This document shows, one piece after another, positions 2-13,093 of a stretch of DNA of 64,000 nt. The position numbers and the translations under genes are program-made. The DNA is from an uncultured Paracoccaceae bacterium. Lineage in GTDB: Bacteria > Pseudomonadota > Alphaproteobacteria > Rhodobacterales > Rhodobacteraceae. How positions within the stretch are numbered: the first letter of the stretch is position 1; the number at the start of each line of letters is the position of its first letter. Where the stretch lies: NCBI GenBank assembly GCA_947494675.1, contig CANLVP010000002.1, positions 1 to 64,000 of the forward strand, written 5' to 3'. The notes beneath the pieces are model-generated. The model searched no databases. It had not been told where the DNA came from and saw only the letters and a program-made list of their open reading frames with translations.

Positions 2-2782
2 ACGGCGGGGGCGGCGAGCCTTTATGGCGGGGCGGGTGATGACACGTTGTCGGCCTCGGGCGGGGCGGACACCGAGTTGCTCTATGGCGATGCGGACAAC
101 GACACGTTCCTGGTGGACGTCCCGGGCGGCAACTACACGAACGACGTGCATATCGGCGGGACCGGATCGGATCGCCAGCTGTTCTTGGGCGACACCGACG
201 GGCAGGTCTTTGACATGGACGGGCTCGAAGTCCTCGGCATCGAAGAGGTGGAGTTCGCGGCCATCGGTGGCAACCGCAACATCACCGTCATCCTGAACCC
301 CGATGAGTTCAGCACCACGGGCAACGAATATTCCAACACGCTGCTGATCGACGGCAACAACGTGGTCGGCTCGACGGACATCCTGCGGGTGGACCTCAAC
401 GACAGCGCGTTCACGACCTTCCTCGACTTCTCAGGCTGGGGCTTCACCGGCTGGGGCGGACAAGGCGACCACGTCCAGATCCAGGGCTCGTCCCGCAACG
501 AAACGATCTATGGCACCAGCCAGGTTGATAGCATCCATGGGGGTGCCGGGAATGACACCTTGTTTGGCGGTGCGGGGGACGATTCCATGTCCGGTGGTGC
601 AGGCAATGATACGCTTGATGCTGGAGTGGGGAATGATACCGCGGACTATTCCACGGATAAGCGGGGCGTTGTCGCAACCACGACCCTGGCGACGGGTGCG
701 GGCATTGGCACCGATACACTGACGGGGTTCGTCAACATCGCTGGCGGCAGCGGAAATGACACGATCACCGGCGACAGCGCGGCCAATACCCTGAGCGGGA
801 ACGGCGGCGATGACACAATCAATGGCGGGATTGGCAGCGACGTCATCTACGGCGGGGATGGGAATGACCATATCCTTGATGGTGGGGGGCTTTCGGGCGG
901 CACAGACACGGTCTTTGGCGGTGACGGCAATGATTGGATTGAAAAAAGCGGCGGCCTGAACGGAGATTTCCGGGATGGTGGCGACGGGATCGACACCCTT
1001 GATCAATCGCAATCCTTCGTCTTTGGGTCGATGATCGTCGATCTTGAGGCCGGAACGATCAACTTTACCATCGGCACAGCCTCCGCAACGGCCATCAACT
1101 TTGAGAACTACAATGGCGACAACCTCGCGGAGACGATCGGCGGGACATCGGGGTCAAACACGATATTCGGCAACGCTGGTGCAGATGTCATCAACGGTCG
1201 CGACGGCGCGGATGAGCTCTATGGCGGCGACGATGGCGACACGATCAATGGCGATGATGGCAATGACACGATCTTTGGCGGTCTGGGAAGTGACGGCCTC
1301 TATGGTGGAATTGGGGACGATTCCATTGACAGCGGTGCAGGAGCGGACACCGTTTATGGTGGCGCTGGTAACGATATCTTGGACAACCGCGGGAATGTGG
1401 GCGCGGCCGGCGAATTGCTTGACGGCGGCGACGACAACGATCTGATCTACTTTAGTGGTCTGGGGTCAGAAACGGCCTATGGCGGCGATGGCATAGATAC
1501 GATTGATACCTCTGACTACAACGGCACATATCAATTGGATTTGGCGACCGGGATCACGAATTTTGTCGAACGTGCGTTTGAGTTTGAGAACGCTGTCCTC
1601 GGCGGTGGCTCGGACAGTGTTTCGGGGACAAGTGGCGCAAATACAATCGACGGAAGGGCCGGGGCTGACACCATCCTGGGCCTCGACGGTCAAGATCACC
1701 TTACCGGTGGCACCAGCGGCGATAGTTTGCGGGGCGGAAATGGCTTTGACAGTCTTTTCGGCGGTGCTGGCAATGACATCTTGCGTGGTGACGGGGGCAA
1801 TGACCTGCTGAACGGTGGGGCTGGCAACGATCTGATTGAATTCGGTGGCGGCATCGATACCACCGTTATGCTCAATACGGTGGCTGCTCAGGACACTGGG
1901 CATGGCATCGACACCATCATCGGGATCGAAAACGTAACCACGTCCGGGGGTGATGATGAAATCACCGGAAGCAGTGCAGCTAATGAGTTACGCGCAGGCG
2001 TTGGCAACGACACGCTGTTTGGTCGCGCGGGCGATGATCAGCTTTATGGCGGCAGCGAAAATGACGCGTTGTATGGCGGGAGCGAGCACGACAGCCTTTA
2101 TGGCGGCGGCGGGAACGACATTCTGCTTGGTGACGCGGGTGACGACCTTATCAATGGCGGATCCGGGACGGACCGGGCGATCTATTCAGGGCCCGTGGAT
2201 GCCCATGTGCGGTTGAACACGGTTGCCGTGCAGGCGACTGGGCACGGCAACGACAAACTTGTCGGTATCGAGGAACTGGAGACCGGTGGCGGCAACGATA
2301 CGCTTGTTGGTAACGGTGGCGACAACATCTTTGAAACGGGGTCAGGCGCGGACAGCGTCTTTGGGCGCAACGGCGATGACACGATTATCGCTGGCGCTGG
2401 CAATGACATCCTGCGCGGCGGGGTCGATGCGGATTCACTTTATGGCGGTGATGACGACGACAACCTGTTTGGTGCCAATGGCGCGGACTGGCTAAATGGC
2501 GGCACCGGAAACGATCAGCTGAATGCAGGAAATGGCACCGACACATTCGAATTCGATGTGGCCTTTGGGGCCGACCGGATTGTCGGGTTCGAGGACGACA
2601 TCGACACAATCCGCATTGATGATGCGCTATGGGGTGGTGGTCTGACAGAAGCGCAGGTGATTGCGACCTATGGATCAATCATCAACGGCGCGACGACGCT
2701 GGACTTTGGTGGCGGCAATACAATCCGTCTGATTGGCTTCACTAACACCAACGCGCTGGTCGATGATCTTGTGATCTTTTGA
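2..2782 (+). CDS. RTX (hemolysin-type calcium-binding) repeat protein, 5' truncated by window edge
   Basis: The reading frame is open from base 2 and the repeats already run there, so the true start lies outside the window. Seen: dozens of glycine/aspartate nonapeptides of the GGxGxDxLx type, interrupted by non-repeat spacers. Two spacers are near duplicates (around bases 1850-1940 and 2200-2290, each with a LNTVA..xTGHG motif and a following GIE). The C-terminus has no repeats and ends in a hydrophobic/acidic stretch (DDLVIF), as in type I secretion signals. Known of the family: RTX repeats fold into a calcium-binding beta roll after export through an ABC/HlyD/TolC channel. Inferred: a secreted or surface protein; no enzymatic domain is visible in the part present. 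The type I exporter at 33.7-38.4 kb is a candidate partner, but it probably serves the adjacent adhesin. Confidence 0.9.
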   Translation, partial: TAGAASLYGGAGDDTLSASGGADTELLYGDADNDTFLVDVPGGNYTNDVHIGGTGSDRQLFLGDTDGQVFDMDGLEVLGIEEVEFAAIGGNRNITVILNPDEFSTTGNEYSNTLLIDGNNVVGSTDILRVDLNDSAFTTFLDFSGWGFTGWGGQGDHVQIQGSSRNETIYGTSQVDSIHGGAGNDTLFGGAGDDSMSGGAGNDTLDAGVGNDTADYSTDKRGVVATTTLATGAGIGTDTLTGFVNIAGGSGNDTITGDSAANTLSGNGGDDTINGGIGSDVIYGGDGNDHILDGGGLSGGTDTVFGGDGNDWIEKSGGLNGDFRDGGDGIDTLDQSQSFVFGSMIVDLEAGTINFTIGTASATAINFENYNGDNLAETIGGTSGSNTIFGNAGADVINGRDGADELYGGDDGDTINGDDGNDTIFGGLGSDGLYGGIGDDSIDSGAGADTVYGGAGNDILDNRGNVGAAGELLDGGDDNDLIYFSGLGSETAYGGDGIDTIDTSDYNGTYQLDLATGITNFVERAFEFENAVLGGGSDSVSGTSGANTIDGRAGADTILGLDGQDHLTGGTSGDSLRGGNGFDSLFGGAGNDILRGDGGNDLLNGGAGNDLIEFGGGIDTTVMLNTVAAQDTGHGIDTIIGIENVTTSGGDDEITGSSAANELRAGVGNDTLFGRAGDDQLYGGSENDALYGGSEHDSLYGGGGNDILLGDAGDDLINGGSGTDRAIYSGPVDAHVRLNTVAVQATGHGNDKLVGIEELETGGGNDTLVGNGGDNIFETGSGADSVFGRNGDDTIIAGAGNDILRGGVDADSLYGGDDDDNLFGANGADWLNGGTGNDQLNAGNGTDTFEFDVAFGADRIVGFEDDIDTIRIDDALWGGGLTEAQVIATYGSIINGATTLDFGGGNTIRLIGFTNTNALVDDLVIF

Positions 2783-2932: not shown

Positions 2933-4213
2933 TTATGTCTCGGCTGCACCGGATCCGGTCAGGAAATAGGTCTGAATTTCGCCCTTGCCCTTGATGTCCA
3001 CGGTGCCGCGCGGCTCAAAGGTGTAGCGATCTGACAAGGCGTCATAGACCTCTCGGGTCGTTTGGATGCGCCCGGGCATGCCGTATGTTTCCAGGCGCGA
3101 TGCGGTATTCACCGTGTCGCCCCAGACGTCGTAAAAGACCTTTCGCGTGCCAATGACACCTGCGACCGCAGGGCCGGTATGAATGCCGATCCGCACCGTA
3201 AAACGCTCACCCATTTCCTCACTGATTTTTTCCGTGACCTGTAAAATGTCAAAGGCCATGTCGGCCACCGCTGCGGCATGATCATCGCGCGGTTCGGGCA
3301 TCCCGCCCGCCACCATATAGGCGTCGCCGATAGTCTTGATCTTTTCCAGACCATGCTTGTCGGCCAGGACGTCAAACTCTGTGAAAACACGGTTGAGGAA
3401 TGCCACCACATCAGGCGCGGACATGCGCGACGCCCGTGGCGTAAAGTCGACGATATCGGCAAATAGGATCGTCATGTGCGGGATATCATCCGCGATCACG
3501 TCCGCTGTTTCATGCTTGAGCCGCTTTGCAATCGACCGCGGCATGATGTTTTCCAACAGGCGTTCCGAACGGCCATATTCATGCTCAAGCTCGGCCTTTT
3601 GAAGCTCGATCAGCTCTCGCGCCGCCTCAAGCTGCCGGTAGCCCGAATAGGTCAGGAAATACACGAAAAACACCCCTGCCGTCATCGCCAAACCTTCGCC
3701 CAAAGCCAGCGGTTGCTTGATGGGGGAATGAAACAGCGATCCGGTTGGGTTTGTCGTGGTCTGGTTTATGGCAAGCGTGATCTCAGGCAGATAGTCGTTG
3801 ATCAACGGCACGATCAACATCACCAGAAAACACACCACGAACCAAGGGCGCGACTTTTGCGGGCCGATCACCACGACAGCAAGTGCCGAGATTACCAGAA
3901 ACGGCAATGTGTCGCCTTCGCGGTTCCCGTTCAGCAAAAAGTAAACCAGATTGACGACGACATAGGGGGGTGCTGCCACGTGGAACAGGTTTTCGGCCTT
4001 TTTCGTCCGGTGAAGCGCAATGAGGCCCGCAAACTGAGCTGCGAGTGCGGCGATATCGACCGCGCGGTAGATCGGTGACCTTGGGCTTTCCAAAAAGAAG
4101 CCGAACGTCACGATCATCAAAACGAATATGCAAATGGCAGAGAGTGATTTCAGCCGTCGACTGCTTTCAGTATCATCTGGCGCATGACCGATACGGACAA
4201 AATCAGTAATCAT
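2933..4213 (-). CDS. Membrane-anchored class III adenylate cyclase
   Basis: 426 aa. The N-terminal half carries about six hydrophobic segments (first near residues 24-41, last near 172-191), then a short charged helix (195-220) and a class III cyclase domain (about 240-420). Key residues are all present: metal-binding Asp253 (FADIVDF) and Asp297 (TIGDAYM), adenine-specifying Lys293 and Asp362 (YDVWGD), and transition-state Asn369 and Arg373. The Lys/Asp pair points to ATP rather than GTP. It makes cAMP at the cytoplasmic face of the inner membrane. It is the last of three minus-strand genes that also encode a cyclic-nucleotide-binding membrane protein and a Crp-type regulator, which suggests a dedicated cAMP circuit. 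The 196-bp gap upstream may hold its own promoter; none was recognised. Confidence 0.93.
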   Translation of the reverse strand: MITDFVRIGHAPDDTESSRRLKSLSAICIFVLMIVTFGFFLESPRSPIYRAVDIAALAAQFAGLIALHRTKKAENLFHVAAPPYVVVNLVYFLLNGNREGDTLPFLVISALAVVVIGPQKSRPWFVVCFLVMLIVPLINDYLPEITLAINQTTTNPTGSLFHSPIKQPLALGEGLAMTAGVFFVYFLTYSGYRQLEAARELIELQKAELEHEYGRSERLLENIMPRSIAKRLKHETADVIADDIPHMTILFADIVDFTPRASRMSAPDVVAFLNRVFTEFDVLADKHGLEKIKTIGDAYMVAGGMPEPRDDHAAAVADMAFDILQVTEKISEEMGERFTVRIGIHTGPAVAGVIGTRKVFYDVWGDTVNTASRLETYGMPGRIQTTREVYDALSDRYTFEPRGTVDIKGKGEIQTYFLTGSGAAET

Positions 4214-4409
4214 AACGTCTATTACATTTCCAATAGCACCCGAAAATGCGTGGGGCGAATGCAGGGGGTCAGGCCAAAATCACAAAGCGTGACCGTCAGC
4301 CCAAGATGCCACGTGGCGCGACAAAGTCATCCCAAAAAAGTGAGGCCAAATTTGACATTTGCATCTGCAGCCGTATTTGCCCCCTGCACCTGTGACCCGT
4401 CTCCGTGGC

Positions 4410-5105
4410 CTAATTGTGATAAACGTCGAGGTTGGTCGCCTCCAGTTTGCTCTTGAGGTTCTGCACAAACCCGCTTTTGACCGCTTCCGCGACCGTCTGT
4501 TCCTGTGCCGCAAGCTTGCGCAGCGCCTCCGTGTTCAGCATCAGATATTGCGAAGGCGCATTGAGCCGCACGGTCGCTGTCGCTACATCGCCCGAAAGTG
4601 CTGTCATTTCGCCGACAAAATCGCCACGCGAACAGACCGCGACTTTCTTGTCGTTCAAATAGACATCCGCGCCCCCCGAATTGAGGTAGATCAGATTTGC
4701 GTTCGGTTTGCCTTGGGTCGTCAGCTCGGTTCCCGCGTCGCCATCAATCCACAATCCCAGATCAAGAACCTTGCGCCCCTGCGCCTTTGTCAGACCAGGA
4801 AGCTTATCTTGCAGAAAGGCGGCGTCATCCTCGGAAAACCGCATCACGCGGGACAAAAGGTGCATCCGCACCAATCCGACGATGGAAATCACGATCCAAC
4901 TGACCTGAATAACGACCGAAGCCGCGTTAAATGAGACGATCAGGCTAATCGCGACACATGAGGCCGCCGTCAGGTTCATCAGGATATAGGTGGTGGAGTT
5001 GCCCCCGATATATCCCAGCTGCAAAAGCGTATAGGACAACAGATAAAGACCGGCACCAAAAAGGCCGACCGCATTCAAAATTTCAAACAAAGTCATTTTT
5101 CTCAA
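4410..5105 (-). CDS. Three-TM membrane protein with C-terminal cyclic nucleotide-binding fold
   Basis: 231 aa. Seen: three hydrophobic helices (about 7-30, 37-58, 62-84), resembling the CBU_0592-like membrane domain, followed by a domain of about 100 residues with the beta-roll pattern of CNMP-binding proteins (about 93-200). The phosphate-binding cassette is recognisable (GDFVGEM, 161-167), but the Arg that contacts the cyclic phosphate is Ala175 (ATATV where the neighbouring Crp has RTATV). cAMP binding may therefore be weak, altered or lost. It lies between the adenylate cyclase and crp-like genes, 75 bp downstream of a perfect CRP-type palindrome, so cAMP-Crp control is likely. The function is unknown; a sensor or regulator of the neighbouring cyclase is one inference. 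Confidence 0.8.
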   Translation of the reverse strand: MRKMTLFEILNAVGLFGAGLYLLSYTLLQLGYIGGNSTTYILMNLTAASCVAISLIVSFNAASVVIQVSWIVISIVGLVRMHLLSRVMRFSEDDAAFLQDKLPGLTKAQGRKVLDLGLWIDGDAGTELTTQGKPNANLIYLNSGGADVYLNDKKVAVCSRGDFVGEMTALSGDVATATVRLNAPSQYLMLNTEALRKLAAQEQTVAEAVKSGFVQNLKSKLEATNLDVYHN

Positions 5106-5179
5106 CCACTATGAATATTGGCGCCCTCCCGATGAGGGCCCAGGATGTGAAAGTGCTAGTGGTAAGAGGCAGATCAGTC

Positions 5180-5195
5180 TGTGACCTTGGTCACA
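5180..5195 (-). promoter_or_regulatory. Perfect CRP-type operator TGTGA-N6-TCACA
   Basis: The 16-bp palindrome TGTGACCTTGGTCACA matches the cAMP-CRP consensus at all ten conserved positions. It lies in the 96-bp gap between the crp-like gene and the downstream membrane CNB gene, about 75 bp before that gene's ATG, a usual distance for an activator site upstream of a promoter. The adjacent Crp-like protein has the SRExV recognition-helix motif that reads this sequence in Escherichia coli CRP. Confidence 0.75.
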
Positions 5196-5201
5196 AATCT
5201 C

Positions 5202-5891
5202 TTAGATTGCATAAACCCCGCTCAGGAACCGCAGTTCTGATCGATCCAAAATCCGAATGTGCTGTCGCTTCATTTCGACGACGCCGGATTGGTTCCAGTT
5301 TGCGAGCGTTTTTGAGACCGCCTCGCGGGATGTTCCGATAAACTCGGAAAGTTCGACATGCGAAAAATCCAGGACCTCTGCCGGAGGGTCCTGATCTGCC
5401 GTCAGATGCAGGATTTTCCGGGCCAGCCGTTCTGGCAGGCGCAGAAACACCTGCTCTTGCAGCTGCTCGGTCAATTGGCGCATGCGTTTGGAGATCAGCG
5501 CGACGATCTCCAGTCCCAGTTCCGGATCATCCCGAAGCGCATCGAGCAAATTCTTGCGGCTGATGGACAACAACGCGCAATCGGTTCGGCCAGAGACCGT
5601 CGCGGTGCGAACACCGGGGTCAAACACTGCAATCTCGCCGATCAGGTTTCCAGCATTCACCAGATCCAAAACCAGTTTACGGCCATTGGACGACAGAACG
5701 CTGACCTCAAGTGACCCGTCGCAAATTGCATAAAGCGTGTCGCCATCATCGCCTTCGCGAAAAAGGGTTTCACCGGCAGTCAGCGCCGTCGGCACGGCAA
5801 TCCGCTCCAGCGCTTGGATCACCTTGGCCGGGGCATATTTCAGGATGCTCGTCCGCGGGAGGCCAAGGTCAGCAACGCCGTCATTTACCAT
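5202..5891 (-). CDS. Crp/Fnr-family transcriptional regulator, CRP-like
   Basis: 229 aa, the usual length. The N-terminal cyclic nucleotide-binding domain (about 15-135) has an intact phosphate-binding cassette, Gly85-Glu86 and Arg95-Thr96-Ala97. A long dimerisation helix follows (about 125-150), then a winged helix-turn-helix whose recognition helix reads TSREAVSKTL (187-196). Arg189 and Glu190 match the DNA-contacting Arg180 and Glu181 of E. coli CRP, and Lys194 replaces Arg185. No N-terminal Cys cluster of the FNR type is present. It is probably a cAMP-responsive regulator, cotranscribed with or closely linked to the CNB membrane protein and adenylate cyclase genes. A consensus CRP box lies just after its stop codon. 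The regulon beyond this cassette cannot be told. Confidence 0.88.
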   Translation of the reverse strand: MVNDGVADLGLPRTSILKYAPAKVIQALERIAVPTALTAGETLFREGDDGDTLYAICDGSLEVSVLSSNGRKLVLDLVNAGNLIGEIAVFDPGVRTATVSGRTDCALLSISRKNLLDALRDDPELGLEIVALISKRMRQLTEQLQEQVFLRLPERLARKILHLTADQDPPAEVLDFSHVELSEFIGTSREAVSKTLANWNQSGVVEMKRQHIRILDRSELRFLSGVYAI

Positions 5892-6182
5892 GAAATGTCT
5901 CCAAACTCGTCATCCAACATACATTGGTGCGGCGCAATGAAGCTGTCCACCCTTGGACCTTGTCTCCGTTATGCTGCTAGTTCTCTGAGCTTTGCAATCG
6001 CAACAGCTTACGGGGGCAGGTAGGCCAACAAGCAAACCCGTCAGTGTCGATAGGGACGATTGGGCAACGTCTGTGACATGCGCCCAGATTGACAACGGGC
6101 CGCAAATGAAGATGGTCATTTGACGGGATGCAACCCGCGCGCCGGTTTGCATTCCGCGCAACAACAGCACTGGCGGAACAAC
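5892..6182. promoter_or_regulatory. Divergent intergenic region between crp-like gene and pca operon
   Basis: About 290 bp with no credible gene. It must hold the promoters for the minus-strand crp-like gene and the plus-strand pca operon. A lone CRP half-site (TGTGA near 6071) is present without its partner half. I recognise no PcaQ-type operator, and no pcaQ gene is adjacent. Confidence 0.4.
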
Positions 6183-10210: not shown

Positions 10211-13093
10211 CTAAGCGGCGAGGATCAAGCGGCCCGCATTGTTGCCAAGCAGGCGTATGAATTCCGAGGTCTTCTCAAATGACAAAGGCCGCCCCAATGC
10301 ATAGCCTTGCAAATAATCGCACCCCAAATCCTTGAGGATTTGCGCATGTTTTGGCGTCTCAACGCCTTCGGCGACAACGGCGACGTCCTGCATCTGACCG
10401 ATGCTGATGATCGTCTTGATCAAGCTGCGCTGCCGCTGGGAATGGGTGATCGGCGCGATCAATTCACGGTCAATCTTAAGCCGATCTGGTGACACCTTGA
10501 GCAAGCTCACGATCGAAGCGTGGCCAGTCCCGAAATCATCGACTTCCACCTCGATCCCCAAATCCTTGAGGGCATCGAGGTTTTCTGCCAGTGCTTCGCC
10601 GTAGGAGTCCAGAAAGGCGGATTCCAACAGTTCAAAGGCAAAGCGGCCAGCAGGTAGGTTCATCGACCGCAACGTCTTGGCAAGATCGGGGTCCGACAAT
10701 CGCGCGGCTGATACGTTGACCGAGACCCTCGGCACGATCAAACCTTGATCGTCCCAAGCCGCTAAGTCCTGATTTGCCCTTTGAAGGACAAGCGCGTCGA
10801 AATCGGCGATCATCCCCATCTCTTCGGCGGTGGGCAGGAATGTGTCCGGCATCAATAAGCCGCGGGTCGGGCTTTGCCAGCGCACCAACGCCTCCAGCCC
10901 CGTTAGCTCCAGTGTCCGCGCGTCAAATTGCGGCTGATAGTGGCAAATGATCTCGCCCTGCTCAAAACCCGCCAGCAAGGCATCAAACGCGTTCTTGCGA
11001 TCCGCTGCGTTCTTTTTCATCTCCGCCCCAAAGAACCGGCACCTGCCGCGCCCGTCTTTCTTGGCGGCGTAAAGTGCCAGATCGGCGGAAATGATCAGCG
11101 AGGCATCGGCCGTATCCTCTTGCCCTGAAACGGCGATTCCGATGCTCACCCCAAAATTGCAGGGCTGTCCTTCGAACGAAAAGGGGGCAGCCATCTGGTC
11201 GATGATTCCGGTCGCGATCTCGCGCAATTCATCGTCGGGCGGGGCATCGGGCAAGAGCATCACAAATTCATCTCCGCCGACGCGTGCCGTGAACCAGTTG
11301 TCTTCTGCCGCCGCCCGCAGAATGCCTGCCGCATGGACCAAGACCGCGTCACCCGCGCCATGCCCAAGCGTGTCGTTGATCTGCTTGAAGTTATCGAGAT
11401 CGATGTGCAGCACGGCGCGCCGTTGACCCGTATCGCCGTTCAAGAATGTCTCCTGAATCTCGTCCAGCCCGCGCCTGTTCGTCAGCCCGGTCAACGCATC
11501 GTGACGGGATTCGTATTCCAAGAGCGCCCGCGCCGCCTCAAGCTGTTGTTGCCGCTCAACATCCTTGCTGACGTCGATATTGACGCCGACAAATCGATCA
11601 CCGCGCGCACTGTCTGGCACAAAGATGGCGCGGCTTCGCACATGCACGACCTTGCCGTCTGGCCGAACGATCCGGTAGTCGAGGTTCAAATCCAGACCTT
11701 TTTCGACGCTTTCTTCGGAAATTCTGTTCGCGCGTTCCTGGTCGTCGGGGTGGATCAAGGTGGCCCAAAAATCGCCGGGCTGAACGTTGCTTTGTCCCTC
11801 CATGCCGAACATTTCAAGAAGCCGGTCATCCCAATAGGCAACTTCATCACGTAAGTTGAATTCCCATCGCCCCATGTCTGCCGCGCGCATTGCAACGCGC
11901 AGGCGGTCGGTCATTTGTGCGTGCTCAAATTCAACCGTTTTGATGTCTGAAATGTCCGTATCCGTGCCAATCACGCGCGCCGGATCACCGTTGGGGCGGC
12001 GTTCCACAACCCGCCCGCGGCTAAGAATCCAGATCCATCGCCCATCGCGATGTTTGGTGCGGTATTGATAGTTCACCGCATCCGTTTCGCCGCTATTCTG
12101 ACTGTCGATCGCGGCACGGACCCGCGGGACGTCATCCGGGTGCATGTCGGTCAACCAACTGGCGAGCATTTCCGCAATGTCGTCGTCCGGGCCGATGCCG
12201 CGCATCGAACGCCAAGTGTCTGATACAAAACGACTCCCTCTGACCAAATCGTAGTCCCAGACTCCTTGATTTGCGCCTTCAATCGCAACTTTCCAACGGA
12301 CCTCGCGACTGGTCAGATCCTCGATCAGATTCTGCGAAGCCTTGAGCCGCGTAATGTCCGTCTCTGTCCCGATCAGCCGAGAGGGCGCACCATTAGCCCC
12401 ACGTGAAACGACATACCCGTTGGTCAAGATCCAGATGTAATGGCCATCCTTATGCCGCTCACGAAATTCCACTGTCAGCGTGTCGGTCTGGCCAGACAGG
12501 ACAGCGGCCAGCTTGTCGTTCACGAGGTCAATATCGTCGGGGTGGATGCGTTCATCAAAGTTGCTCAACTCTGACAAGCTGGTGTCGTCCCGACTTCGCC
12601 CGCGCATTAGGTACCAATCATCCGAAAAGGTGCTGGTGTTTTGCGTCAGATCAATCTCCCAAACGGAGTGTTCGCCCTTGGTCAGGGCGGCGCGCCAGGT
12701 CACTAGTTCTTGGGTCAGCGTGTCATGCGGTTGTTGGCACAAAAAACCAATAAGTGCGTCATCGTTGTCGCGCAGCGCGGTCAATGAAAATGACGCTGAC
12801 TGTCCTTTCCAGTGAACGACAAAACTGGTGTATTCTTCCGCCGTTCCGTCGACGGTACATGCAACAAACTCGGCAAAAAGGTCGCGATCCCTTGGCGTAA
12901 GCAATTCGGAAAATTCAAGACCTTCGGTGACGCGCGCATGCGTTAGTCCGACGATGTCGCTGGTGAGGGTGTTGATCTGCAATACGCGACCGTCAACGGA
13001 CAATGCCATCGCGGGCATTTGCAACGCTCGGATCATGGGTGCGACCGAGAAACCTAGATTGATCTGACTGTGCCGCATCGCTTTTCGCTGCAT
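10211..13093 (-). CDS. Four-PAS GGDEF-EAL protein (cyclic di-GMP turnover)
   Basis: 960 aa, no membrane segment. Order: four PAS/PAC modules (about 20-120, 135-250, 265-385, 395-510; three end in the typical GTDTDIS-like strand), GGDEF domain (about 520-690) with intact GGDEF at 606-610, and EAL domain (about 705-945) with EALVRW at 734, the DDFGTG loop, AEGVET and QGYALGRP. Both cyclase and phosphodiesterase residues look complete, so either or both activities are possible; the RxxD inhibitory site before GGDEF is not evident. Cytoplasmic sensing through PAS ligands is inferred. It may feed the adhesin at 30.9 kb, but nothing in the sequence proves a link. Confidence 0.93.
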   Translation of the reverse strand: MQRKAMRHSQINLGFSVAPMIRALQMPAMALSVDGRVLQINTLTSDIVGLTHARVTEGLEFSELLTPRDRDLFAEFVACTVDGTAEEYTSFVVHWKGQSASFSLTALRDNDDALIGFLCQQPHDTLTQELVTWRAALTKGEHSVWEIDLTQNTSTFSDDWYLMRGRSRDDTSLSELSNFDERIHPDDIDLVNDKLAAVLSGQTDTLTVEFRERHKDGHYIWILTNGYVVSRGANGAPSRLIGTETDITRLKASQNLIEDLTSREVRWKVAIEGANQGVWDYDLVRGSRFVSDTWRSMRGIGPDDDIAEMLASWLTDMHPDDVPRVRAAIDSQNSGETDAVNYQYRTKHRDGRWIWILSRGRVVERRPNGDPARVIGTDTDISDIKTVEFEHAQMTDRLRVAMRAADMGRWEFNLRDEVAYWDDRLLEMFGMEGQSNVQPGDFWATLIHPDDQERANRISEESVEKGLDLNLDYRIVRPDGKVVHVRSRAIFVPDSARGDRFVGVNIDVSKDVERQQQLEAARALLEYESRHDALTGLTNRRGLDEIQETFLNGDTGQRRAVLHIDLDNFKQINDTLGHGAGDAVLVHAAGILRAAAEDNWFTARVGGDEFVMLLPDAPPDDELREIATGIIDQMAAPFSFEGQPCNFGVSIGIAVSGQEDTADASLIISADLALYAAKKDGRGRCRFFGAEMKKNAADRKNAFDALLAGFEQGEIICHYQPQFDARTLELTGLEALVRWQSPTRGLLMPDTFLPTAEEMGMIADFDALVLQRANQDLAAWDDQGLIVPRVSVNVSAARLSDPDLAKTLRSMNLPAGRFAFELLESAFLDSYGEALAENLDALKDLGIEVEVDDFGTGHASIVSLLKVSPDRLKIDRELIAPITHSQRQRSLIKTIISIGQMQDVAVVAEGVETPKHAQILKDLGCDYLQGYALGRPLSFEKTSEFIRLLGNNAGRLILAA

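What the first reader, a model, noticed from the sequence alone, without database searches (positions are those of the whole stretch)
2933..5891. Compact cAMP circuit: adenylate cyclase, CNB membrane protein and Crp in one strand block
Three adjacent minus-strand genes encode a complete class III adenylate cyclase, a three-helix membrane protein with a CNMP-binding fold, and a CRP-like regulator with intact cAMP and DNA contacts. Usually cya and crp are unlinked. Together they look like a self-contained sensing and response module.
Basis: partly seen in the sequence, partly recalled or inferred. Interest (0 to 1): 0.72.

Follow-up and report, generated by a model that had tools for sequence, protein, structure and literature searches.

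The report
Cyclase partnered with Popeye-like membrane protein
A bacterium carries side by side an enzyme expected to make the signal molecule cAMP, a gene regulator expected to read it, and a small membrane protein built like the animal Popeye proteins of heart and muscle; relatives of that membrane protein repeatedly sit beside very different cAMP enzymes, so it is probably a general partner of them.

Summary
The three minus-strand genes are real: a class III adenylate cyclase (AC, 2933-4213), a three-helix membrane protein with a C-terminal cyclic-nucleotide-binding fold (CNM, 4410-5096) and a Crp-like regulator (5202-5891). Two points need correction. CNM's cassette lacks the phosphate-anchoring arginine, as do all 30 aligned sequences. 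Crp keeps its cassette, but the residue at the E. coli T127 place is Leu. The AC is the genome's only PF00211 cyclase. Five same-genus genomes lack AC, the CNM fusion and a close Crp relative. One of only two perfect TGTGAN6TCACA sites in 3.9 Mb lies in the 105-bp crp-cnm gap. The exact gene order was seen only here; one other genome has the trio reversed. What recurs is the pair: in 13 of 32 CNM genomes a cyclase lies within 10 kb (11 of 16 single-cyclase genomes; 0.1 expected), and these cyclases have at least five architectures. A related branch scores as POPDC (Popeye, PF04831), though CNM itself does not; animal POPDC1 binds and inhibits adenylyl cyclase 9. Best reading: a Crp-regulated cAMP cassette with a Popeye-like membrane partner of the cyclase. 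Nothing was tested biochemically. Pycsar-type defence is disfavoured.

The parts
2933..4213 (-). Membrane class III adenylate cyclase (426 aa): five hydrophobic stretches by hydropathy in the N-terminal half, then one catalytic domain 243-419
   Evidence: PF00211 202.9 bits. Best PDB matches are adenylate cyclases type 5, 9 and 8 and entries named 'Adenylate cyclase' such as 7yzi. D253 and D297 (metal), K293 and D362 (adenine), N369 and R373 are present (residue roles recalled).
4410..5096 (-). CNM: three-helix membrane protein (CBU_0592 type) with C-terminal CNB fold, Popeye-like architecture
   Evidence: NF047864 79 bits; PF00027 39.8 bits; AlphaFold2 pLDDT 92.6; Foldseek CNB matches; cassette Arg absent in 30 of 30 aligned sequences, this one included.
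5180..5195 (.). Perfect Crp-type site TGTGACCTTGGTCACA in the crp-cnm gap, centre 91.5 bp upstream of the cnm ATG
   Evidence: One of 2 exact places in 3.92 Mb; only exact match in the window; expectation in the gap 4.9e-5.
5202..5891 (-). Crp-family regulator (229 aa): CNB with GE...R-T-A cassette, HTH with TSREAVSK recognition helix
   Evidence: PF00027 71.9 and PF13545 59.5 bits; best PDB matches are 3d0s and relatives, then 4byy and relatives (M. tuberculosis CRP and C. glutamicum GlxR, organism names from recall).

Best explanation
A patchily distributed, self-wired cAMP cassette. (1) The membrane AC makes cAMP (inferred from intact catalytic residues). (2) Crp binds cAMP or a close relative of it (inferred from its intact phosphate cassette; the base contact is altered, so ligand preference is open) and binds the perfect site between crp and cnm, controlling cnm and possibly AC (site shown, regulation inferred). 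(3) CNM is a dedicated membrane partner of class III cyclases. It most likely binds the cyclase through its transmembrane helices and works as an anchor or feedback brake, as animal POPDC1 does with adenylyl cyclase 9. Its CNB domain either reads cAMP in a non-canonical way or works as a ligand-free docking domain. The functional CNM-cyclase link is well supported by comparative genomics; the direction (brake, activator or scaffold) is inferred by analogy only.
For: Linkage: 13 of 32 CNM genomes have a PF00211 cyclase within 10 kb; 11 of 16 genomes with exactly one such cyclase, against 0.10 expected (genomes not independent). Linked cyclases differ in kind: CHASE2-AC, AC-AAA, response-regulator-AC, HNOBA-AC, one unclassified and the window AC. 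Co-occurrence: 28 of 32 CNM genomes against 143 of 362 others have PF00211 (Fisher 1e-7). In a 44-row tree all 13 linked rows fall in the 27-row CBU_0592-type clade (SH-aLRT 100) and none of the 17 other rows is linked. Fold and three-helix build. A related branch passes the PF04831 cut-off (5 of 10 proteins scanned). POPDC1 binds AC9 through TM and Popeye parts (PMC9724675) and inhibits it (PMC10063672). Crp site. Sole PF00211 cyclase.
Against: 19 of 32 CNM genomes show no PF00211 cyclase within 10 kb. Two of these (G139, G201) have the CNM on contigs of 3 and 9 kb; four have no PF00211 at all; in six cyclase-rich genomes the nearest listed cyclase on the CNM contig is 38 kb or more away and in a seventh none is listed there, though the listing was cut for some of them. 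The window CNM does not match PF04831 even at E 10, and its membrane half aligns only inconclusively with that of the POPDC-scoring branch (hhalign probability 38%). Crp's T127-equivalent is Leu. Two perfect sites genome-wide equal the chance expectation of 2.1, so only the position is informative. The promoter scan found nothing in either gap. No physical interaction was tested.
Confidence: 0.5

Rival explanations
1. Pycsar-like defence: the cyclase makes a cyclic pyrimidine on phage attack and the membrane CNB protein is the pore-forming effector (PycTM-like).
For: A cyclase next to a membrane CNB protein is the Pycsar layout (PMC11224242 passages). A PADLOC PycC model hits the AC at 49 bits, and PycTIR models hit the CNB of CNM at 38 bits. 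PDB 8jsk PycTIR is among the profile hits.
Against: The same PADLOC PycTIR model hits the Crp equally well (41 bits), so these look like superfamily hits. The AC has the adenine-type Lys/Asp pair (roles recalled). G, E and R of PycTIR are conserved ligand contacts whereas the CNM family lacks the R in 30 of 30. Linked cyclases include two-component, CHASE2 and HNOBA types, which suit environmental sensing. A Crp is present.
Confidence: 0.1
2. Plain neighbours: crp and AC form an ordinary local cAMP pair, and CNM is a passenger with an unrelated membrane role (for example in surface or secretion functions that happen to be cAMP-regulated).
For: CNM also occurs without a near cyclase: beside folD (L063 scanned; L064, L072, L075 by cluster) or with type I secretion genes in G163, a genome without PF00211 (L078). 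The 17 rows outside the CBU_0592-type clade are not cyclase-linked. Several linked loci also carry FecR, type I secretion or SulP-CNB genes.
Against: Linkage to five or more cyclase architectures is not expected of a passenger; 11 of 16 single-cyclase genomes are linked against 0.10 expected.
Confidence: 0.25
3. Cassette regulator of the neighbouring pca-like operon: crp-cnm-AC replaces a LysR-type gene as divergent regulator of pcaC.
For: In same-genus G004 a LysR-like gene (named by eye) lies divergent to pcaC where the window has crp; the crp-pcaC gap is 228 bp.
Against: No Crp site with up to one mismatch in the crp-pcaC gap, only a TGTGAC half. Whether the LysR-type gene lies elsewhere in this genome was not looked for.
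Confidence: 0.1

Closest known systems
Animal POPDC/Popeye proteins (PF04831) with adenylyl cyclase 9
   Same: Three TM helices followed by a cytosolic CNB fold without canonical cassette; partner of a membrane class III adenylyl cyclase (PMC9724675, PMC10063672).
   Different: Window CNM has the CBU_0592 membrane domain and no PF04831 match. GE of the cassette is kept, whereas POPDC uses DSPE/FQVT (PMC5872366 passages). Bacterial interaction is not shown.
CBU_0592 family membrane proteins (NCBIfam NF047864)
   Same: 27 of the 30 aligned sequences, the window CNM among them, match it.
   Different: The NCBIfam profile is 72 aa long and covers the membrane part only; here it is fused to a CNB domain.
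S. meliloti CyaC/CyaD1-Clr cAMP system
   Same: Membrane AC and Crp-type Clr; CyaC and Clr interact (PMC10463352 abstract); a FecR protein and a TPR protein among Clr targets (PMC5498481 passages).
   Different: No CNM-type protein came up in the passages I read; Clr binds cAMP and cGMP through a TT motif (PMC10127613 passages), while the window Crp reads LT there.
Pycsar (PycC with PycTM/PycTIR)
   Same: Class III-type cyclase and a receptor with a TM or TIR domain (PMC11224242 passages).
   Different: Adenine-type cyclase residues, no cassette Arg in CNM, PADLOC hits no stronger than those of the Crp.

Membership tests
Class III adenylate cyclase (PF00211) | Full catalytic domain over the gathering score | tested here: met
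   202.9 bits against 21.9, profile 5-182 of 183.
Class III adenylate cyclase (PF00211) | Metal Asp pair, adenine-type Lys/Asp, transition-state Asn/Arg | tested here: met
   D253, D297, K293, D362, N369, R373, in alignment with AC5; the role of each residue is recalled.
Class III adenylate cyclase (PF00211) | Makes cAMP | not testable with these tools
   Needs an assay.
Crp (cAMP receptor protein) | CNB plus Crp HTH domains | tested here: met
   PF00027 and PF13545 over cut-off.
Crp (cAMP receptor protein) | Phosphate cassette G-E...R-(S/T) | tested here: met
   GEIAVFDPGVRTATV aligned with M. tuberculosis CRP.
Crp (cAMP receptor protein) | C-helix T127/S128 base contacts | tested here: not met
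   The T127-equivalent is Leu; the S128-equivalent is Thr (the two residues are named in PMC10127613; their placing through the M. tuberculosis alignment is mine).
Crp (cAMP receptor protein) | NCBIfam CRP equivalog NF008732 over cut-off | tested here: not met
   92.4 bits against 266: a Crp-family protein, not that equivalog.
POPDC / Popeye (PF04831) | Window CNM reaches the PF04831 gathering score | tested here: not met
   No match reported at E up to 10 (HMMER's filters drop most weak matches).
POPDC / Popeye (PF04831) | Related bacterial proteins reach the PF04831 gathering score | tested here: met
   5 of 10 scanned (48.2, 46.4, 41.1, 35.7, 29.6 bits; cut-off 28.1); 0 of 10 (best 27.7).
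POPDC / Popeye (PF04831) | Membrane half homologous to that of the POPDC-scoring branch | tested here: inconclusive
   hhalign of the membrane halves alone: probability 37.6%, E 3e-4.
POPDC / Popeye (PF04831) | Three TM helices then CNB fold, cassette Arg absent | tested here: met
   AlphaFold2 model; cassette columns.
POPDC / Popeye (PF04831) | Binds cAMP and adenylyl cyclase | not testable with these tools
   Needs biochemistry.
Pycsar | CNB effector with cassette G, E, R | tested here: not met
   R absent in CNM and its 29 aligned relatives; the three residues named for PycTIR in PMC11224242.
Pycsar | PycC/PycTM-specific models | tested here: inconclusive
   Hits of superfamily strength only, also to the Crp; PADLOC gives no cut-offs here.
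CBU_0592 membrane protein (NF047864) | Profile over cut-off | tested here: met
   79 bits against 25, positions 2-72 of 72.

The most novel reading that the evidence does not exclude
CNM and its POPDC-scoring relatives are bacterial members of the POPDC superfamily, and anchoring or braking a membrane adenylyl cyclase by a three-helix CNB-fold protein is an ancient partnership that predates animals, here packaged with its own Crp and Crp site as a portable cassette.
Probability: 0.27. Interest if true: 0.85.

Novelty: new variant of a known kind. Interest (0 to 1): 0.6.

Why it matters
If CNM is a cyclase partner, bacterial cAMP systems have a modular membrane component that I found named in no paper. 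How POPDC proteins, linked to human muscular dystrophy and arrhythmia, control adenylyl cyclase could then be studied in a 228-residue bacterial protein with a 426-residue cyclase. [quoted passage not shown] alphaproteobacterial proteins over the PF04831 cut-off argue otherwise.

Tried and rejected
Looked for named relatives with alignments A1 and A2: no stretch conserved enough. The single-protein scan gave 13 loci, of which six (L124-L128, L131) carry all or part of the CNB fusion. One plasmid relative, not followed. Crp sites in 41 other loci (some overlapping, some without a called CNM): no exact site near a CNM, one exact site elsewhere (L085 12430), and a one-mismatch site beside the Crp of L105. 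The second perfect site of the genome (C2:353806) lies inside a 482-aa permease-like ORF, so it is probably a chance match. CNM relatives drawn from the class search: none of 15 neighbourhoods (13 outside the family, one same-family, and the genome's own second copy) held a cyclase by a home-made HMM. That HMM finds two cyclases it was not trained on, L096 and L110, at 147 and 149 bits. The two nearest relatives outside the family sit on contigs of 12.7 and 6 kb. PF04831 over 398 genomes of the phylum: matches in 2, one over the cut-off, so this DNA-level search sees few bacterial POPDC-like genes. I had guessed that the genome's own second copy (L175) would sit beside rpsA-aroA as in six other loci; it does not. 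No POPDC chain is among the 60 rows shown (of 187) for the profile of the related branches. Pycsar considered and disfavoured.

Corrected on checking: the first profile comparison shared three rows between its two sides; repeated without them, on the 27-row clade against the 10-row branch, it gives probability 99.9% and E 1e-37 over 220 columns, but the membrane halves alone are inconclusive, so I lowered the novel reading from 0.30 to 0.27. The distance script left out cyclase positions of seven cyclase-rich genomes; those listed on the CNM contig were added and none is nearer than 37.8 kb (one of the seven, G160, has none listed on that contig).

Rows dropped: of 36 genomes matching CNM at 1e-15, four (G070, G167, G169, G208) were left out because the match covered only the short membrane domain or part of the protein. 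Three of those four (G167, G169, G208) do have PF00211.

Papers: PMC10127613, PMC5872366, PMC6562197, PMC5498481, PMC4222275 and PMC11224242 in passages; PMC10463352 outline and abstract; PMC9724675 passages and section 14; PMC10063672 outline, abstract and section 8; others only as search listings. The library is open-access only.
Full report
WHAT IS THERE. The window starts at base 1 of contig C2 of a 3.92-Mb genome, so it sits at a contig edge. Three minus-strand ORFs lie at the stated place. In the direction of transcription they are crp (5202-5891), cnm (4410-5096) and the cyclase (2933-4213), with gaps of 105 and 196 bp. They are flanked by a convergent RTX-repeat gene whose frame runs off the contig start and by a divergent pcaC (PcaC equivalog) with genes I name pcaH and pcaG by similarity and recall. 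Named relatives of the membrane protein are mostly Rhodobacteraceae and other alphaproteobacteria.

THE CYCLASE. PF00211 covers residues 243-419 at 202.9 bits. The best solved relatives are adenylate cyclases type 5, 9 and 8 and entries named 'Adenylate cyclase'. Hydropathy gives five clear hydrophobic stretches; a sixth was not resolved. The catalytic residues D253, D297, K293, D362, N369 and R373 are present (roles recalled). It is the only PF00211 cyclase in the genome; other cyclase classes were not searched.

THE CRP. CNB and HTH_Crp_2 domains are both over cut-off. Its cassette GEIAVFDPGVRTATV is complete. Eight CNB matches exist in the genome; of the four aligned, the other three lack the GE...R cassette. 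Its C helix reads QLTEQ where E. coli has VTSEK (recalled), so the residue at the T127 position is Leu, in line with the M. tuberculosis alignment. The relative in L105 reads WMSEE. cAMP is therefore plausible but unproven, and another cyclic nucleotide is not excluded.

THE SITE. The exact pattern TGTGAN6TCACA occurs at two places in the genome, against none for the pattern read backwards. One is 5180-5195, in the gap between crp and cnm. The genome-wide number matches chance (2.1 expected), but a hit in that 105-bp gap has an expectation of 4.9e-5, and 2.6e-4 for all 529 non-coding bases around the three genes. The recognition helix TSREAVSK keeps the R-E pair; M. tuberculosis CRP reads SRETVNK at the aligned place. 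Autoregulation is inferred.

THE MEMBRANE PROTEIN. CNM is a CBU_0592-type membrane domain (NF047864, 79 bits) fused to a CNB. AlphaFold2 with 14 sequences gave pLDDT 92.6: three long helices, a short linker, the CNB roll and a long C-terminal helix. The 50 Foldseek rows shown are CNB proteins or channels that contain a CNB. In an alignment of 30 sequences, the window's included, the cassette G and E are invariant, but the Arg position is Ala in 29 and Ser in 1. The ten sequences of the POPDC-scoring branch also lack it (6 Ala, 3 Thr, 1 Ser).

WHO ELSE HAS IT. The fusion is absent from five same-genus genomes, which match only in the short membrane domain. The AC has no match there at E 1e-5 (0 of 5) and the Crp none closer than 25% identity. 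In 394 family genomes 36 match at 1e-15, of which four were dropped as partial. In the 32 kept, 28 have PF00211, against 143 of the other 362 (Fisher 1e-7); counting the four dropped genomes as carriers gives 31 of 36. In 13 of 32 a PF00211 cyclase lies within 10 kb. Of 16 genomes with exactly one such cyclase, 11 are linked where 0.10 are expected (genomes are not independent). The linked cyclases are CHASE2-AC in seven loci (L094 scanned, six by cluster), AC-AAA in two (L105 scanned, L098 by cluster), response-regulator-AC (L100), HNOBA-AC (L104), an unclassified one (G265) and the window's. Among the 36 neighbourhoods only L067/L105 also has a full-length Crp match next to CNM, in reversed order. 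A 44-row tree puts all 13 linked rows in the 27-row CBU_0592-type clade, with seven changes of label against 11.3 in shuffles. The other 17 rows fall in two groups, of 7 and 10, and are unlinked. In 385 class genomes 46 match the profile at 1e-15, many through one domain only. Fourteen of the neighbourhoods fetched from them and the genome's own second copy showed no cyclase with a home-made HMM.

POPEYE. Five of 10 proteins scanned exceed the PF04831 gathering score; all five lie in the 10-row group of the tree, the one farther from CNM. The 7-row group scores below it (best 27.7 against 28.1), and the genome's own second copy scores 26.7 (L175). With shared rows removed, the profiles of the CBU_0592-type clade and the 10-row group align at probability 99.9%, but their membrane halves alone do so only inconclusively (37.6%). 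The window CNM is not a PF04831 match, so it is Popeye-like in build, not a proven member. Animal POPDC1 binds AC9 through its TM and Popeye parts independently of cAMP (PMC9724675), and BVES/POPDC1 lowers AC9-made cAMP (PMC10063672). That gives the working model: CNM anchors or restrains the cyclase, and Crp sets the dose of CNM.

RIVALS. Pycsar has a similar layout, but the PADLOC hits of CNM are no stronger than those of the Crp, and the cassette Arg conserved in PycTIR is missing. A passenger role is weakened by the variety of linked cyclases but not excluded, since 19 of 32 genomes show no close cyclase. Control of the pca-like operon is possible because the cassette sits where a same-genus genome has a LysR-like gene, but no Crp site with up to one mismatch is there.

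VERDICT. The trio itself is rare, but the pair behind it is a recurrent association that I found unnamed in the open-access library.

Noticed in passing
window 47-2782 (+): RTX-repeat protein fragment (18 HemolysinCabind stretches) whose frame runs off the contig start, convergent with the cyclase; several CNM loci elsewhere also carry type I secretion, FecR or adhesin-repeat genes (L078, L094, L095, L097).
   Followed up: partly
L094 8456-10654, L095 6219-8396, L097 10636-12804, L098 4908-7136, L065 3483-5729: SulP-STAS transporter with a C-terminal CNB domain (L094 scanned, others by cluster) lies next to or near CNM in several genomes: a second membrane CNB protein in the same clusters.
   Followed up: partly
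L175 5977-6678 (-): The window's own genome has a second, Popeye-type copy (PF04831 26.7 bits, just under the cut-off 28.1) 1.15 Mb away on the same contig.
   Followed up: partly
L074, L085, L086, L087, L088, L090: CNM relatives in these six loci sit in a conserved housekeeping neighbourhood with genes for ribosomal protein S1 and EPSP synthase (L074 scanned, others by cluster).
   Followed up: partly
window 10211-13093 (-): PAS-GGDEF-EAL protein (960 aa) close by: c-di-GMP turnover near the cAMP cassette.
   Followed up: no
window 5892-6119 against L137 7659-8682: The cassette stands divergent to pcaC where a same-genus genome has a LysR-like gene (possibly pcaQ, by eye).
   Followed up: partly
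L105 13175: One-mismatch Crp site TGTGAACCACATCACG just downstream of the Crp gene in the only other trio locus.
   Followed up: no
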